A stretch of 44,725 nucleotides of DNA from a virus, in the IMG/VR virus record IMGVR_UViG_3300035099_000078, positions 1 through 44,725 of that record; one strand, 5' to 3'. A program made the translations under genes and the position numbers. Each line of letters opens with the position of its first letter. Position 1 is the stretch's first letter. Under the pieces are notes generated by a model. That model was not told where the DNA came from, ran no database searches, and saw only the letters and a program-made list of their open reading frames with translations. Shown piece by piece: positions 14,085 to 22,342 of this stretch.

Positions 14085-14294
14085 CTATTTCTCCTTATCT
14101 GGATTCAATTCATTCTCGACGTCTTTTAAGCTAATTCCAAGCTCTTTAAGAAAATCCCTCAATGGAATTTCATACGGCGCAATACCTACAAAACCGTCAT
14201 ACCATCCCGATATTTCCAACAATCTTTTACTTTTTATGTATGTTACGTTAATTCCCGAATCACCCTCGCCAGAAACTATCTCTCTGGATTTCAT
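14085..14294 (-). CDS. Hypothetical protein, 69 aa
   Basis: The ATG overlaps the stop of the ERCC4-nuclease gene (ATGA). The product has a beta-rich first half and an acidic helical end (LKELGISLKDVENELNPDKEK). No motif is recognised. Its coupling to neighbours supports expression. Confidence 0.6.
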   Translation of the reverse strand: MKSREIVSGEGDSGINVTYIKSKRLLEISGWYDGFVGIAPYEIPLRDFLKELGISLKDVENELNPDKEK

Positions 14295-14803
14295 CAGATC
14301 TCCCCCTTCCTCTTCAGATTGAAATACCGAATGAACCTATCCAATATCCATCTTTCAGCCTTACGTCTATCAGGCTGATAGTAGACTCCTATCCCGTACC
14401 TGATCTCCAGGGATGTCAGGAATCCCCGGGCAACATTGGGATGCAGCAATGAGAATTCCTGCCAGGACAGGACATCATCCTCGGTTGCCTCAATGAGCAA
14501 CCATTTCCTTTCATACTTGCTGAGCCCTTCAAGCTCAGCCTTAAACCTCTCCCTGCCCTTACCGATCGACCCAAAGAGATCGCTAAGGTTCTTGCGTTCT
14601 ACAGCAAGGAGATCCTGGAACCCTCGGATACTGTAGTCTCCATATTTTAGGGTATCCCGAACTATCGTCAATCCCTTCCTGGGATGTTTAAAGAGCATAT
14701 CCTGTTCCCTGGTATCAATGACCAGGATGAAGTCCTCTGGGAACTCAAACTTAAATTCAATAGGCTTCTTATCTCCCCTATCCTTTGGAATGCTTATCTT
14801 CAT
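14294..14803 (-). CDS. ERCC4-type (XPF-like) nuclease
   Basis: The 169-residue protein carries the ERCC4 nuclease signature: IDTRE (residues 29-33), GDYS (55-58), VERK (68-71) and a following Asp in NLSDL. These residues bind the metal in XPF/Hef and phage recombination nucleases that cut branched DNA at single-strand/double-strand junctions. There is no HhH dimerisation domain, so it would act as a stand-alone core domain or with a partner. It sits between ssDNA-binding-type and phosphoesterase genes, which supports a recombination or fork-processing role. Confidence 0.85.
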   Translation of the reverse strand: MKISIPKDRGDKKPIEFKFEFPEDFILVIDTREQDMLFKHPRKGLTIVRDTLKYGDYSIRGFQDLLAVERKNLSDLFGSIGKGRERFKAELEGLSKYERKWLLIEATEDDVLSWQEFSLLHPNVARGFLTSLEIRYGIGVYYQPDRRKAERWILDRFIRYFNLKRKGEI

Positions 14804-15048
14804 TCTTCAAAGTCCAGTATTGAGAATTGGTCAATCCTGCCCAATAGGTAGGGAGGACTGGAATGCCCATAATGGCATACCCAACGGACAGTCCAGCCCT
14901 CGCCATGGTTATGTTCCAGCTCAAAGCGGACCATTCCTCCGCAGCCACGTGGACTATTGCCCGGGCATCTTCTGTAGAAAACAGAGCGTGGCCAGATATA
15001 ATAGCAATGGTCCGCGATTAGTCTTTTCGCCTTAGGCCCAATCATCAT
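14800..15048 (-). CDS. Hypothetical cysteine/histidine-rich protein, 82 aa
   Basis: The product has CPGNSPRGCGG and later VCHYGHSS, i.e. C-x7-C plus C-x-x-x-H, a possible zinc site, with several tryptophans between. The start lies inside the end of the DUF669-like gene (17-base overlap) and the stop overlaps the nuclease start. Function unknown; a small zinc-binding nucleic-acid protein is a reasonable guess. Confidence 0.6.
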   Translation of the reverse strand: MMIGPKAKRLIADHCYYIWPRSVFYRRCPGNSPRGCGGMVRFELEHNHGEGWTVRWVCHYGHSSPPYLLGRIDQFSILDFEE

Positions 15049-15535
15049 TTTTTTCGTTAGCTACAGGAATAATGGTCTTGGCCTCTTGCTTTGATAGTCC
15101 TACTTTCTCCGCAATCAGCTTAGTAGCATCCTTGGCCGTGTAGTATGCCACACTATTGGACATCATGTTCCCCTGATTGGTCTTCTTATGGATAATCTTA
15201 GCTCCATAAATCTTGCCAACCAGCTTATCCTTTAGTCGATTCCGAAACCCTTCAGACTCGAATAGGTCCGTATCGCACTTCTCAGGACTGATAGCCCCAA
15301 CCTTAACTAGGAATCCAGCAAGCCTCTGGACTCCAAACTCATCTGATCCTGCTGTCCAGCCAAAATTCTCAAAATGCAGGATTCCTTCTGACGGGCCCCC
15401 TTCGGCCCTAGCTGTAATCTTGGCAAGATACTTGCCGTTGTCCTTGACTTCAACCTTGGCGTCCTCGATCAGAAACAGATGGACGCCCTCCTCGACAATG
15501 GGAAACTCACTCTCGAACTTCGGAACAATTTTCAT
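15032..15535 (-). CDS. DUF669-like candidate ssDNA-binding/recombination protein
   Basis: The 167-residue protein starts with FPIVEEGVHLFLIEDAKVEVKD, then GKYLAKITARAEGG, then a strand with HFENFGW. This is the layout of DUF669 proteins, found with phage Sak4/RecA-like and Cas4-like genes and thought to bind single-stranded DNA. It ends DDWA after an acidic/polar tail. An AGGAGG site precedes the ATG at 15535. Given the Sak4-like and nuclease genes in the same operon, it probably serves their single-strand annealing pathway. Confidence 0.65.
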   Translation of the reverse strand: MKIVPKFESEFPIVEEGVHLFLIEDAKVEVKDNGKYLAKITARAEGGPSEGILHFENFGWTAGSDEFGVQRLAGFLVKVGAISPEKCDTDLFESEGFRNRLKDKLVGKIYGAKIIHKKTNQGNMMSNSVAYYTAKDATKLIAEKVGLSKQEAKTIIPVANEKNDDWA

Positions 15536-15570: not shown

Positions 15571-15696
15571 TTATCTCTTCTTCCTTTTCAAGCCAGTTCC
15601 TCGCGGAGGAACCTTAGTTGTCCCGTAAAGCCTTTTATGTCTAGCTCTACGTTCTGCTTCAGTCCTTGGCCTCCCCATCCTTCTAGCTCCAGCCAC
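15571..15696 (-). CDS. Small basic protein, 35-41 aa
   Basis: The frame reads MGRPRTEAERRARHKRLYG and then TTKVPPRGTGLKRKKR. The 'A-E-R-R-A-R-H-x-x-L-Y-G-t' plus 'P-P-R-G-T-G' pattern is one I associate with very small basic phage proteins of unknown function. GTG at 15696 sits 7 bases after a full anti-16S match (ATCACCTCC on the plus strand, 15704-15712) and gives 41 residues; ATG at 15678 gives 35. The basic nature suggests nucleic-acid binding. Confidence 0.65.
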   Translation of the reverse strand: MAGARRMGRPRTEAERRARHKRLYGTTKVPPRGTGLKRKKR

Positions 15697-16250
15697 CGTA
15701 ATTATCACCTCCCTTCTTTTGATCCTTCTGAAATAACTCGCTTTCTACGAATGGTTTCCTTGGTAGGCGTGGCTCGCTCTTTCGTGATGGTTTTCTTGTC
15801 TTCCTTGGTTCGCTCGTATTCAATGGTTTCCTTCATGACGGATGGCTCGCTTATGAACGTTGGTTTTCTCATGGACCCTGGCTTGCTCACCAAGTTTGGT
15901 TTTCTCATATGCCATGGCTCGCCTACTGGGCATGGTTTGCTCGGCTATCTTGGCTCGCTCATCTCGTTTGGTTTTCTTCTGTAGTATGGCTCGCTTGCAT
16001 ACACTGGTTTCCTCCGAGGCGATGGCTCGCTTATTGATGATGGTTTTCTCTTTAAAAACGGCTCGCTTTCCACTCGTGGTTTGCTCACCCCATATGGCTC
16101 GCTCATCGACATTGGTTTGTTCACCTCGCCTGGCTCGCTCATTGGAGGTGGTCTCCTCGGCGCCATTAGCTCGCTCAGTTTAAGTGGGTTACTCTTAATC
16201 TCTGGCTCGCCCAGTCCTTCTGGTTTTCTTGGGGATTTTGGCTCAATCAT
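15683..16250 (-). pseudogene. Hexapeptide-repeat gene [S/R][E/K]Pxxx, interrupted
   Basis: ATG at 16250 overlaps the stop of the IS110-like gene (ATGATTGA), so this begins as a normal coupled gene. It encodes alternating SEPxxx and RKPxxx hexapeptides, for example SEPYYR RKPNEM. A TAG at 15945-15947 stops it after 101 residues, but the same repeat continues in frame beyond. One extra base in the unit at 15824-15842 then shifts the frame; after correction the repeat runs on to a TAG at 15683-15685. The intact product would be about 188 residues, highly charged and probably disordered. It may be a decaying gene, or coding may be secondary to the DNA repeat. Confidence 0.6.
15734..16238. repeat. 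28-unit, 18-bp periodic array with variable spacers
   Basis: On the plus strand the segment divides into 28 units of 18 bp (one, at 15824-15842, is 19). Each begins with a 9-base core: odd units mostly TGGCTCGCT, even units mostly TGGTTTTCT/TGGTTTCCT. The other 9 bases differ in nearly every unit. A degenerate unit follows at 16239. Cores alternate strictly, giving a 36-bp super-period. The period persists through the amber codon and across the 1-bp insertion. Confidence 0.9.
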
Positions 16251-16983
16251 CAACCATTTCCTCAGCAGTTATTATGTGTTCATGTCCACCTTTTGCTATA
16301 ACATATGGCTGGGATATAGGCAACCCTTCTGCCTCCCTCCACTTCAACCAAAGATGACTTAGGAACAGCTTCATCATCTTCCTGAATGCCATCCGGTCAA
16401 CGTGACCCAGGGAGAATTTGCCATCCTTCTCAACCTTTTTGCCATCCTCTGTAGGAAGATTGGCTGCCGGTACAACCTGAATTCCTTTATCGGCTAGCTT
16501 CTGAACTATCTTTTCTTTCTCCGCTCTGTAATAATCCGCATATTTGTTGTTAGCCTTGATAAAGGACTGCCCCAGTCTCCAGCACATCACTTTTAGCATT
16601 TGGTTATAGTGTATTGGTTCTCCCTTAGTCCGCTTTTCTACATGCTTATTGCCATCCTCACCAATTGGAGCACCCAGGGCATATCTCCATAGCTTTGATA
16701 TGGTTTGGCACTTCTCGATATCAATGAGGCAGATTACCTTACCGATGTTAAGGTCACCGATGCCCTTGATCTGCGAGAACCAGCCATAGCAAGGATGAGC
16801 CCTTACTACTTCGGCCACTTTGCTATTTAGCCATTTCTCGAGGTCATAGACCCGCTTTTTAATTTCAGTCGTCAGGGGGTCTTCGGACTCGTTACGTTTC
16901 AGGTGGCTTTCCCTAACCTGAGCTTGCACCCTGGCTTTTTGGATGAAGTACAATGCTTTGTCAACGAAAACCAAATCTTGCAT
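16243..16983 (-). CDS. IS110/IS116-type HhH (Transposase_20-like) phage protein
   Basis: The 246-residue protein has a helical N-terminus, then GWFSQIKGIGDLNIGKVIC (residues ~68-86), a helix-hairpin-helix, and ISKLWRYALG, as in the C-terminal domain of IS110-family transposases. The end (DRMAFRKMMKLFLSHLWLKW, then QPYVIAKGGHEHII) matches phage versions of this domain. The DEDD RuvC-like domain of true IS110 transposases is absent, so it is not a complete transposase; a DNA-junction-binding role is more likely. ATG 16983 has AAAGGAG 10 bases upstream and is preferred over the in-frame start at 17037. It is coupled to the repeat gene. Confidence 0.7.
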   Translation of the reverse strand: MQDLVFVDKALYFIQKARVQAQVRESHLKRNESEDPLTTEIKKRVYDLEKWLNSKVAEVVRAHPCYGWFSQIKGIGDLNIGKVICLIDIEKCQTISKLWRYALGAPIGEDGNKHVEKRTKGEPIHYNQMLKVMCWRLGQSFIKANNKYADYYRAEKEKIVQKLADKGIQVVPAANLPTEDGKKVEKDGKFSLGHVDRMAFRKMMKLFLSHLWLKWREAEGLPISQPYVIAKGGHEHIITAEEMVDD

Positions 16984-16997
16984 TTTGGGTTTCTCCT

Positions 16998-17201
16998 TTA
17001 TTGACGCCCAAACGTGGCATCCTGGCATCTCTGGCAAAAACCGGAGATACGGTATTCTCGTCTGGACAATTCATCCCTAAATCCCGTTACTTTGTCTCCG
17101 CACCATGCGCAGGTATCGTTACGGATGGCATCCCTTCTGGACTTCGGAGCAAGCAAGTCAATCAAAAACTCAATATCCAAACCCTTCTTAGTTGGTTCCA
17201 T
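16998..17201 (-). CDS. Zinc-ribbon protein, 67 aa
   Basis: Two cysteine pairs, CAWCG and CQRC, separated by about 25 residues form a treble-clef or zinc-ribbon site. The N-terminal helix is LDIEFLIDLLAPKSR. A strong GGAGGTGA site precedes the ATG at 17201. No catalytic motif is visible; nucleic-acid binding is the usual role of such small proteins. Confidence 0.7.
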   Translation of the reverse strand: MEPTKKGLDIEFLIDLLAPKSRRDAIRNDTCAWCGDKVTGFRDELSRREYRISGFCQRCQDATFGRQ

Positions 17202-18227: not shown

Positions 18228-19028
18228 CTATTTCCTTAGGACAGCCATAATCCTCTGGAAGTCCAGCGGTGCCGGTCCATGCTTGATGGTTTTTTCGTAG
18301 ATTTCGGATGACGAACAACGGGCGAGGAATGTATCCCCTTCCTGGTCTGCAAGGGATACGAAACTAACCCTGGCGGGTACTGGCTTGCCATCAATATAGC
18401 TAAACGGTTTAACAATATACCCCATGAAATCGAAAAGTCCAGGCAGTAGGCGTGGGAATACAATGCCTTGAAGGTATGGAGCGGTCCTTATGCCTCCACC
18501 GTATCTCCGATATCCCTCTTGGATATCGATAGATGTCGCTACAGACACAAGACCATATTTGTTAAAGGAGATTAGTAGCTTTGTAACCCTAAGCATAAAA
18601 CTATTAAGTACATCCCAGTCACCCTTGTCAAGCCTTGTTCTATCAATGATACTTCGGTAGTCGTTCTTGGCAACCCTTTCGGTTTTCCGGGCATCCTCAA
18701 TCTCGGCTTTGAAGTTAGATTGCCCGAAGGTTAGACCATCGAAGAATACGGTCTTGTAGTCCAGCTTGCCTTCCTTGACTTGCTCCAATAGGCTGTTCAA
18801 GAATTCTTCAAGGTCGTCGAAGGAATCGGGTTGGTAATAATCGATCTTTAATCCCTCTGGAATCCCAATCTGGCTATGGACCAACCTTGGGTCTTTCTCC
18901 TCCACGTTGATAAAGCAGATCGGGCCCGGGCAGGTTAATGCTGCCCCGGTCTTGCCGCATCCCGTAGGGCCATAGACTAGAAAGCTGGCTCCAATACTGC
19001 TGCCATCTAATTGTTCAAGTTTTTTCAT
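18228..19028 (-). CDS. Sak4-like / RecA-fold phage ATPase
   Basis: The 266-residue protein has Walker A GPTGCGKT (residues 20-27), the strand CFINVEEKD, and Walker B VFFDGLT (94-100). This short RecA-core layout matches phage Sak4-type annealing ATPases (AAA_24 family). These promote single-strand annealing and usually act with an SSB-like partner and a nuclease; both types of gene lie in the same operon (15032-15535 and 19202-20167). It overlaps the upstream small gene by 14 bases. The annealing function is inferred. Confidence 0.8.
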   Translation of the reverse strand: MKKLEQLDGSSIGASFLVYGPTGCGKTGAALTCPGPICFINVEEKDPRLVHSQIGIPEGLKIDYYQPDSFDDLEEFLNSLLEQVKEGKLDYKTVFFDGLTFGQSNFKAEIEDARKTERVAKNDYRSIIDRTRLDKGDWDVLNSFMLRVTKLLISFNKYGLVSVATSIDIQEGYRRYGGGIRTAPYLQGIVFPRLLPGLFDFMGYIVKPFSYIDGKPVPARVSFVSLADQEGDTFLARCSSSEIYEKTIKHGPAPLDFQRIMAVLRK

Positions 19029-19215
19029 TATTTACCCCCCGTTTCGGTCTTAATTGATGCCTCTCTATTCTGTCAAATATATGACAAAACATTTTAATTT
19101 GTTCCATTGCATCGTCGCTGTTAATCTTCCCTTTGTTATGGACATCAACCACACCCATAATAAATCCAGCAAGCGCTGAATCCCGGAGAAGCTGCTCTAA
19201 GTCAAGCTTTTTCAT
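19015..19215 (-). CDS. Hypothetical helical protein, 66 aa
   Basis: The protein is mainly helical (LDLEQLLRDSALAGFIMGV, then SDDAMEQIKMFCHIFDRIE) with a basic C-terminus. Interestingly its first residues, MKKLDLEQL, resemble those of the downstream ATPase (MKKLEQLDG). It overlaps both neighbours by 14 bases. It may be a small partner of the ATPase or nuclease; no family is recognised. Confidence 0.6.
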   Translation of the reverse strand: MKKLDLEQLLRDSALAGFIMGVVDVHNKGKINSDDAMEQIKMFCHIFDRIERHQLRPKRGVNNEKT

Positions 19216-20167
19216 TGCTTATCCTCTTTTTATATATCTCTTCGCTAATACCTCCACTCTCACAGACTGACAGGAATTCGCAGGAACTTGGCATGAAGCA
19301 AGCTGTCCTATTGGATGTAGGATAAAATTCCGTCTCCAGGTCGATCTCTATGACTACCTTCTGCAACCTGGCTAAATGATAATCTAAATTAAATTCATTT
19401 CTCCAGTAGTTGACGTCTCGGATATAATGCCCCGGCCTATTCTTGACGTCGGCATAGATCCTTTGAGCATAGGAGTCAATAGACTCCTTACGGCTAAGCT
19501 TAAGACTTGGCACCGTTACCAGCCTAACAGTAATCCTCTGTAGGTCCTTAAGGAGTAAGAAATAGGTCGATAACTGGTCCTCCAGGACCCATTTGCTATA
19601 ACCCTCTGGCCTACTGGTATATTTGAATTCATAGGCCATTGTGCCCATCAAAAGGTCCAGCCTTCCCGTCAAAGTCCATCCAGAACCTAGGTCCAAGTTA
19701 GCCTCTTTCTGGGCCAATCCTCGCATCTCGCCATATGCCGATTGGGAATACCATTGCAAGAGCTGGTACAGAGCTATCAGCTCCTGTAATTTGTAATCAT
19801 CCTCTTCATTCTGAATGTTCAAGCCATCGACGATAGCATGAATTATTGGCTTCCAGTCTCCCCCAGTATGAATAGCATCGAAGCATTGGCTGGCTACATC
19901 ACCCATCATCATCCTGATAGGCTTTTCAATCAATTCCCATTCTCTAGATAGCTTCCATCTTTTCTTACATGCTGTCCAGGTGACCAATTGAGAATAGCTA
20001 ATATACTTTGACTTTTCCACCCTTGCCTCCCCGTTGCTTATGGGTATGCCATGCCTTTTGGCATACTCAATGCAAATAAAATTTTGGGATAGCTTGCACA
20101 TGCCCCCACGTATATAGTGGAGGCATGGCTTAACTGATTTATCTATTTGACGACACATGGATTGCAT
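19202..20167 (-). CDS. Cas4/AddB-like PD-(D/E)XK nuclease with Fe-S cluster
   Basis: The 321-residue protein has a PD-(D/E)XK core: LTGRLDLL with D171, AYEFKYT with E180 and K182, then QLSTYF (residues ~199-204), the family's Q-motif. Cysteines C67, C290, C296 and C302 (C..C-x5-C-x5-C) match the 4Fe-4S site of AddB/Cas4 nucleases. The N-terminus adds a further cluster (C5, C15, C24, C32 with CLHYIRGGMCKL) like a CCCH zinc finger. Such enzymes resect DNA ends and feed the annealing ATPase downstream. The start overlaps the upstream gene by 25 bases. Confidence 0.85.
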   Translation of the reverse strand: MQSMCRQIDKSVKPCLHYIRGGMCKLSQNFICIEYAKRHGIPISNGEARVEKSKYISYSQLVTWTACKKRWKLSREWELIEKPIRMMMGDVASQCFDAIHTGGDWKPIIHAIVDGLNIQNEEDDYKLQELIALYQLLQWYSQSAYGEMRGLAQKEANLDLGSGWTLTGRLDLLMGTMAYEFKYTSRPEGYSKWVLEDQLSTYFLLLKDLQRITVRLVTVPSLKLSRKESIDSYAQRIYADVKNRPGHYIRDVNYWRNEFNLDYHLARLQKVVIEIDLETEFYPTSNRTACFMPSSCEFLSVCESGGISEEIYKKRISNEKA

Positions 20168-21721: not shown

Positions 21722-21790
21722 AATAGATACCTCTTTTCGGAATTTTTCGAAGCTCTCATAAAGGATAGGTGAGAAAATCGTGCCAAACCG

Positions 21791-21820
21791 TGTGGATAAC
21801 TTAGCAAAATCTGTGGATAA
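21791..21820 (-). promoter_or_regulatory. Two perfect DnaA boxes
   Basis: TGTGGATAA, the reverse complement of the consensus TTATCCACA, occurs at 21791-21799 and again at 21812-21820. The 21-base offset is two helical turns, so bound host DnaA would sit on one face. Partial boxes TTATCAACC (21913) and TGTGGATTT (21935) follow in an AT-rich tract. Confidence 0.8.
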
Positions 21821-21885
21821 GTGCCATAAAAAGCTAAATCTAGGGTGAATTTGTTGTGATTTTTTGCCCTTTTAAATCTTGCAAA

Positions 21886-21901
21886 CCATTGATTTCAATG
21901 G
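21886..21901. promoter_or_regulatory. 16-bp inverted repeat, operator-like
   Basis: CCATTGA and TCAATGG flank two T residues, forming a perfect inverted repeat suited to a dimeric DNA-binding protein. Confidence 0.5.
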
Positions 21902-21999
21902 ATTTTTAAAAGTTATCAACCTGTTTCCTGGGGTTGTGGATTTCTTTTTTTGATCGATCGACAAAGAATGTCAGTTGGTTGTTAAACGATGTGACAAAA

Positions 22000-22014
22000 T
22001 GCCACGGTGTGGCA
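22000..22014. promoter_or_regulatory. 15-bp inverted repeat, operator-like
   Basis: TGCCAC and GTGGCA flank GGT, a perfect 6-bp-arm site between the DnaA boxes and the rightward promoter. Confidence 0.5.
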
Positions 22015-22022
22015 AATTGCCC

Positions 22023-22045
22023 CATTGTAATTACAATGTAATTAC
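22023..22045. promoter_or_regulatory. 16-bp palindrome plus 11-bp-spaced direct repeat
   Basis: CATTGTAATTACAATG (22023-22038) is a perfect palindrome. Its half TGTAATTAC recurs 11 bases on (22026 and 22037), i.e. one helical turn, as expected for cooperative repressor binding. Confidence 0.55.
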
Positions 22046-22049
22046 GCAG

Positions 22050-22193
22050 CTAATATACATAGGGTTAACAGATTCCTTAATGATATTCATGGACTACAGA
22101 TTAAGGTTGTAGAATCAATAAGTTAGATAGCTAGTCATTTTGCTTAGGTTTGAACTAATATACATATGGTCTAAAAATTCTTTAATAATATTA
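22050..22193. repeat. Imperfect ~38-bp direct repeat
   Basis: CTAATATACATA starts both copies (22050 and 22155). Each continues through a GGT, then TAA, ATTC and TTAAT-ATATT block. Roughly three quarters of positions agree. The copies are 105 bp apart and could be origin iterons or regulator sites. Confidence 0.6.
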
Positions 22194-22313
22194 TATAGTT
22201 AATGGTTATTGATTTTATTAGGTTTTTTATAGACCCTATATATTTAGGTCGAAGGCTAAAGATAATCTAGATGCTAAATTCAATAATAATCTAGCATATC
22301 TAGAAAAAAGTGC

Positions 22314-22342
22314 TTGACAAACAAGGAAATTTGGATTATATT
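22314..22342 (+). promoter_or_regulatory. Rightward sigma70-type promoter
   Basis: TTGACA at 22314-22319 is separated by exactly 17 bases from TATATT at 22337-22342 (one mismatch to TATAAT). It is placed about 20 bases before the ATG of the ribbon-helix-helix gene. ATAATCTAG sites at 22262 and 22286 lie directly upstream and may be operators. Confidence 0.8.

What the first reader, a model, noticed from the sequence alone, without database searches (positions are those of the whole stretch)
15734..16238. 28-unit 18-bp array: fixed 9-base cores alternate with hypervariable 9-base spacers
Seen: cores alternate TGGCTCGCT and TGGTTTTCT-like, one every 18 bp, while the spacers share almost nothing. 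Ordinary tandem duplication would make whole units alike. The cores rarely vary at synonymous sites, although the gene reads SEPxxx/RKPxxx, and the 18-bp period continues past the amber codon and the 1-bp insertion. This suggests selection on the DNA or RNA itself (regular protein binding, nucleoid-like or replication iterons) in addition to, or instead of, the peptide. It may be a previously undescribed repeat element coupled to an IS110-type HhH gene.
Basis: partly seen in the sequence, partly recalled or inferred. Interest (0 to 1): 0.8.

Follow-up and report, generated by a model that had tools for sequence, protein, structure and literature searches.

The report
TIGR guide-RNA array with TasA gene
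The repeat array is a string of 14 two-part guide RNAs next to the phage gene for the protein that uses them, a member of the recently described TIGR-Tas family of RNA-guided DNA-binding systems; it is a real and interesting element, but of a kind already known.

Summary
In detail: 29 nine-base cores, strictly alternating between two types, one about every 18 bp, separated by hypervariable 9-base spacers (window 15737-16247, minus strand). It is not a coding repeat. The same pattern occurs in 112 other stretches of viral contigs (165 arrays, 2155 distinct units), with stop codons in the spacers at about the chance rate. The array is a dual-repeat TIGR (Tandem Interspaced Guide RNA) array: edge repeat AGCGAGCCA, spacer A, loop repeat AGAAAACCA, spacer B, 14 units of 36 nt. 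The adjacent 'IS110-like HhH gene' (16243-16983) encodes its TasA protein: NCBIfam TIGR_Tas 181 bits (cutoff 100), and a confident model whose best structural matches are TasH and TasR. The array begins inside the tas stop codon. Of 97 related array-bearing records, 78 carry Tas. When spacers recur in new contexts, the two flanking a loop travel together (51/56 and 61/80), not the two flanking an edge (5/56 and 3/80). No target was found in this phage, in the sampled loci, or convincingly in IMG/VR. New member of a known kind.

The parts
16243..16983 (-). tasA gene, 246 aa, Nop-domain Tas protein without a nuclease domain; ATG at 16983 preceded by GGAG. The first-stage 'IS110-type HhH gene'.
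   Evidence: NCBIfam NF052498 TIGR_Tas 1.8e-53, 181.7 bits, cutoff 100; phmmer to PDB 9mty TasR 7.7e-21 and TasH 2.2e-12; AF2 pLDDT 93, best Foldseek matches TasH/TasR
15737..16244 (-). Dual-repeat TIGR array: 14 units of edge repeat (AGCGAGCCA), spacer A, loop repeat (AGAAAACCA), spacer B
   Evidence: same architecture in 112 related stretches
16239..16244 (-). First edge repeat, 5'-truncated (GAGCCA), overlapping the tas stop codon TGA (16245-16243) by two bases
   Evidence: [quoted passage not shown]
15737..15742 (-). Last edge repeat, 3'-truncated (AGCGAG)
   Evidence: [quoted passage not shown] The terminator described there was not found here.
15571..15708 (-). Small ORF (45 aa, start uncertain) just downstream in the same direction, after a purine-rich AGAAGGGAGG; suggests array and gene may share a transcript
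   Evidence: inference
16998..17201 (-). Small ORF (67 aa) immediately upstream of tasA in the same direction

Best explanation
This is a TIGR-TasA locus in an environmental phage. The array is transcribed with tasA and, by analogy with published systems, cut within each edge repeat into 14 tigRNAs of about 36 nt. A dimer of the nuclease-less TasA holds each tigRNA by its box D-like (AG) and box C (CCA) motifs. Spacer A pairs with one DNA strand and spacer B with the other, opening and bending an ~18-bp target. With no nuclease, the likely result is a block to transcription or replication, or DNA bending, at targets in other elements or the host. Shown here: family membership, array architecture, tas-array linkage, spacer pairing across the loop, no excess of self-matches. 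Inferred from the published family: transcription, processing, DNA binding. Speculative: the target and the biological role.
For: The Tas protein scores 181 bits on the curated TIGR_Tas model, matches solved TasR and TasH chains by sequence (as a profile TasH 8.4e-53 and TasR 1.2e-46) and by fold (E 3e-10 to 7e-6, with IS110-type recombinases only after them). The array has the published features: two alternating short repeats, 9-nt spacers, truncated edges at both ends, position beside tas. In related contigs 78 of 97 records carry Tas, and in most loci holding both, the array starts within about 30 nt of the tas stop on the same strand; none was found antisense. Edge repeats keep positions 3-6 as C-G or U-G (1028 of 1052) and 2-8 as G-C (1023 of 1052); loops are A-rich, as in the TasR structure. 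Spacer co-inheritance across the loop, 51/56 against 5/56 and 61/80 against 3/80, indicates that edge-A-loop-B is the inherited unit.
Against: No expression data. No target found: self-matches equal control geometries, as do matches among the loci; IMG/VR scans of three window guides gave 1, 1 and 2 hits with no shared target. Box D reads AG here, not the UG of TasR, so the outer U-A pair seen in TasR cannot form in the same way. No terminator found after the array.
Confidence: 0.96

Rival explanations
1. A coding minisatellite: the array encodes a hexapeptide-repeat protein (SEPxxx/RKPxxx), broken here by an amber codon and a frameshift.
For: The frame is open over 102 aa in the window, 15945-16253.
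Against: Homologous arrays have stops in the spacers of that frame at about the shuffled rate, 434 against 406 of 6465. Core variation is mainly non-synonymous: edge GAG to GTG/GGG/GCG 105 against GAA 14; edge CCA to TCA 185; loop AAA to AAC/AAT 332 against AAG 13.
Confidence: 0.01
2. Iterons or a regularly spaced protein-binding array (replication, partition or nucleoid-like), with the cores as DNA sites.
For: Regular pitch and conserved cores; a related phage has a ParB_N-domain gene in the equivalent segment.
Against: Two strictly alternating cores (2123 of 2155 neighbouring units), spacers co-inherited in pairs across one core type only, and an array always in the sense direction of tas point to RNA guides. 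A set of binding sites gives no reason for about 1000 different spacer pairs kept as pairs.
Confidence: 0.02
3. An IS110 transposase gene with its bridge RNA, or a degenerate insertion element.
For: phrog_4285 'transposase' 5e-36; NCBIfam IS110 weakly matches 24 of 46 aligned proteins.
Against: The TIGR_Tas model scores far better, the fold is nearer TasH/TasR (E 3e-10) than IS621/ISCro4 (E 7e-3 and worse), and the protein lacks an N-terminal catalytic domain: it aligns from residue 69 of TasH and 114 of TasR.
Confidence: 0.01

Closest known systems
TIGR-TasA with dual-repeat array (e.g. FpTIGR, Flavonifractor plautii; Faure et al. 2025, PMC12045711)
   Same: Nop-only Tas protein, adjacent array of alternating repeats with 9-nt spacers, 36-nt unit, truncated edges at both ends
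   Different: Different host and sequence; FpTIGR repeat letters were not compared because that record was not fetched. Terminator not seen here.
TIGR-TasR (PDB 9mty)
   Same: Same Nop fold; A-rich loop repeat, edge repeat with an extra pair, both repeats ending in CCA
   Different: TasR has an N-terminal RuvC nuclease and UG as box D; here there is no nuclease and the repeats begin with AG
TIGR-TasH (Salicola phage CGphi29; PDB 9w04 and others)
   Same: Phage-borne; nearest solved fold
   Different: TasH has an N-terminal HNH nuclease and 16 nt of spacer per guide instead of 18
IS110 transposases and bridge RNA (IS621, PDB 8wt6)
   Same: Related Nop-like RNA-binding domain
   Different: Catalytic N-terminal domain, a single bridge RNA, no array
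CRISPR arrays
   Same: Repeats alternate with variable guide spacers
   Different: One longer repeat type, spacers of similar length to the repeats, cas genes; unrelated protein

Membership tests
TIGR-Tas (dual-repeat) | Tas protein with Nop domain | tested here: met
   TIGR_Tas NF052498 181.7 bits, Foldseek TasH/TasR E 3e-10
TIGR-Tas (dual-repeat) | Adjacent array of two alternating 8-12-nt repeats with ~9-nt spacers | tested here: met
[quoted passage not shown]
   GAGCCA at 16244-16239, AGCGAG at 15742-15737
TIGR-Tas (dual-repeat) | Predicted rho-independent terminator after the array (typical, not defining) | tested here: not met
   None found on the minus strand just after 15737 by a simple consensus scan
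[quoted passage not shown]
   Both repeats begin AG and end CCA, 83-99% per position over all arrays; box D is AG rather than the UG of TasR, and the paper says these motifs can diverge between loci
TIGR-Tas (dual-repeat) | The two spacers flanking a loop repeat form one guide | tested here: met
   Spacer pairs conserved across loop, not edge; indirect, evolutionary evidence
TIGR-Tas (dual-repeat) | Processing into 36-nt tigRNA | not testable with these tools
   Needs small-RNA sequencing
TIGR-Tas (dual-repeat) | tigRNA-guided binding of both DNA strands | not testable with these tools
   Needs binding assays; natural target not found
TasA subtype | No fused nuclease | tested here: met
   246 aa, aligns from residue 69 of TasH and 114 of TasR; no HNH or RuvC Pfam hit in it or in 45 relatives
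IS110 transposase | N-terminal catalytic (DEDD/RuvC-like) domain plus transposase family match | tested here: not met
   N-terminal region absent; Pfam finds no transposase domain in this protein

The most novel reading that the evidence does not exclude
Phage TasA systems form a shared pool of 36-nt guide modules that are exchanged whole between related phages. TasA then works as a nuclease-free, multi-target, RNA-guided DNA-binding (blocking) factor against competing elements or the host, and arrays grow by module exchange rather than by capture of single spacers.
Probability: 0.3. Interest if true: 0.7.

Novelty: new member of a known kind. Interest (0 to 1): 0.42.

Why it matters
The natural targets, the origin of spacers and the role of nuclease-less TasA are stated as open in the discovery paper. 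This locus, and the arrays that share its repeats, give 993 distinct guide units for target hunting, and evolutionary evidence that the 36-nt module is the unit that is inherited and exchanged. It also shows that annotation as 'transposase' (phrog_4285) and spurious repeat ORFs hide such systems.

Tried and rejected
Peptide-repeat reading: rejected. Recoded amber: TAG ends 10 of 54 listed ORFs in the window, so a reassigned stop is unlikely. Rfam: no match at E 1 or below around the locus. A homologue search with the window Tas as a single sequence in viral contigs confirmed nothing; the DNA pattern of the cores worked instead. Target search: the expected geometry (spacer B, then reverse complement of spacer A) against other arrangements, in the window, in own loci and in all loci: no excess. 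Exact 18-base targets with 0-2 bp gap in IMG/VR: two shared guides gave 10 and 1 hits, three window guides gave 1, 1 and 2. The 10 include four homologous contigs and otherwise scattered places; L188 is a gap-0 exact match for the first window guide, but single matches are expected by chance. A search for homologues of the ParB-like gene of L189 among the array loci returned nothing (only the first, phmmer step ran).

Full report
WHAT IS THERE. Reading the minus strand, the window carries 29 nine-base cores between 16247 and 15734, alternating between AGCGAGCCA-like and AGAAAACCA-like, with 9-nt spacers (one of 10 nt). Shuffled sequence gives runs of at most 2 such cores against 29 here. The amber codon is inside a spacer and the 1-bp insertion is the 10-nt spacer.

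IT IS NOT A PEPTIDE REPEAT. A scan of IMG/VR with the two cores at the right distance found 112 stretches. In them, with 5 or more cores per run, I found 165 arrays and 2155 distinct units; neighbours alternate in type in 2123 cases. Spacer bases 1-8 are close to random and base 9 is mostly a purine. Stop codons occur in the spacers in every frame; in the SEP/RKP frame 434 of 6465 codons are stops, against 406 when spacer letters are shuffled. Core changes fall mainly at non-synonymous bases, for example edge GAG to GTG, GGG or GCG 105 times against GAA 14, and loop AAA to AAC or AAT 332 times against AAG 13. All these counts come from loci chosen by at least one exact copy of both cores, so core conservation is somewhat inflated; most units counted were not themselves selected.

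WHAT IT IS. The adjacent protein scores 181 bits (cutoff 100) on NCBIfam TIGR_Tas_endo, matches TasR (PDB 9mty) and TasH by sequence, and its AlphaFold model (mean pLDDT 93, pTM 0.87) matches TasH and TasR first and IS110-type recombinases only afterwards. The literature describes this kind of array: two alternating 8-12-nt repeats, 9-nt spacers, a 36-nt unit, truncated edge repeats at both ends, located beside a Nop-domain Tas gene (PMC12045711). Here the first edge overlaps the tas stop codon and the last edge is cut after AGCGAG. Because the protein is 246 aa and starts at the Nop coiled coil, it is the nuclease-less TasA type, despite the family name 'endonuclease'.

EDGE AND LOOP. By analogy with the TasR structure, the A-rich AGAAAACCA is the loop and AGCGAGCCA the edge. 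Edge positions 3 and 6 stay C-G or U-G in 1028 of 1052 cases and positions 2 and 8 stay G-C in 1023, while loop positions 3 and 6 do not pair. Both repeats share AG at the start and CCA at the end. So box C matches TasR, and the box D position reads AG instead of UG.

THE UNIT THAT TRAVELS. Some related arrays share spacers in different orders. When a spacer A recurs in a different context, its partner across the loop is kept (up to 2 mismatches) in 51 of 56 comparisons and its neighbour across the edge in 5; for spacer B the figures are 61 and 3 of 80. Comparisons are not independent, since several arrays are related, but the asymmetry is large. It supports the loop/edge assignment and indicates that whole 36-nt modules are exchanged, gained or lost.

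LINKAGE TO TAS. Tas was found in 78 of 97 distinct array-bearing records at E 0.001 or better, 67 of them above the curated cutoff (one record was searched twice); several of the rest are short fragments. In most loci holding both, the array starts within about 30 nt of the tas stop on the same strand; no array was found antisense to tas.

THIS PHAGE AND A RELATIVE. A related phage (L189, 82% identity in the Sak4-like protein) is collinear around the region but has, between the Sak4-like gene and the counterpart of the gene at 15032-15535, a ParB_N-domain gene and a 186-aa gene in place of the window's small genes, tasA and array. So the module sits in a variable segment. The discovery paper notes TasA loci occasionally in operons with parB-like genes; here the two occupy alternative versions of one segment, which may be coincidence.

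TARGETS. From the published cut pattern (8-nt 3' overhangs) I derived the target as spacer B followed by the reverse complement of spacer A with 0-2 bp between; this geometry is my inference. Matches to the own locus and among all loci do not exceed the other arrangements, so there is no sign of self-targeting. Five exact scans of IMG/VR gave 10, 1, 1, 1 and 2 hits, without a convincing target. The target remains unknown.

VERDICT. Observation confirmed; the nucleic-acid reading correct; the novelty claim not. New member of the TIGR-Tas family, TasA type.

Noticed in passing
L189:6814-8345: A related phage (82% identity in the Sak4-like protein) has a ParB_N-domain gene and a 186-aa gene of unknown function in the segment where the window has small genes, tasA and the TIGR array.
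   Followed up: partly
window 21750-22320: AT-rich region between the divergent gene blocks with two TGTGGATAA (DnaA-box-like) sites at 21791 and 21812, two copies of a 38-nt repeat (22050 and 22155) and an 18-bp near-tandem repeat (21986-22021): a possible replication origin or control region.
   Followed up: no
window 16243-16983: PHROGs labels this Tas family 'transposase' (phrog_4285, integration and excision), so phage annotations probably mislabel Tas genes; many mycobacteriophage genes annotated transposase or hypothetical show weak similarity.
   Followed up: no
L007, L013, L016, L032, L051, L065, L073, L081 arrays: A group of related arrays that share some 36-nt guide modules in different order; a natural data set for TIGR array evolution.
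   Followed up: partly
window 14294-14803 and 18228-20167: ERCC4-type nuclease, Sak4-like annealing protein and PD-(D/E)XK nuclease in the same block as tasA: a recombination/replication gene cluster.
   Followed up: no
L188:5828-5845: Exact gap-0 match to the target predicted for the window's first guide, in contig IMGVR_UViG_3300032516_000309; the same sample also holds an array-bearing contig (L006). Single hit, compatible with chance.
   Followed up: partly
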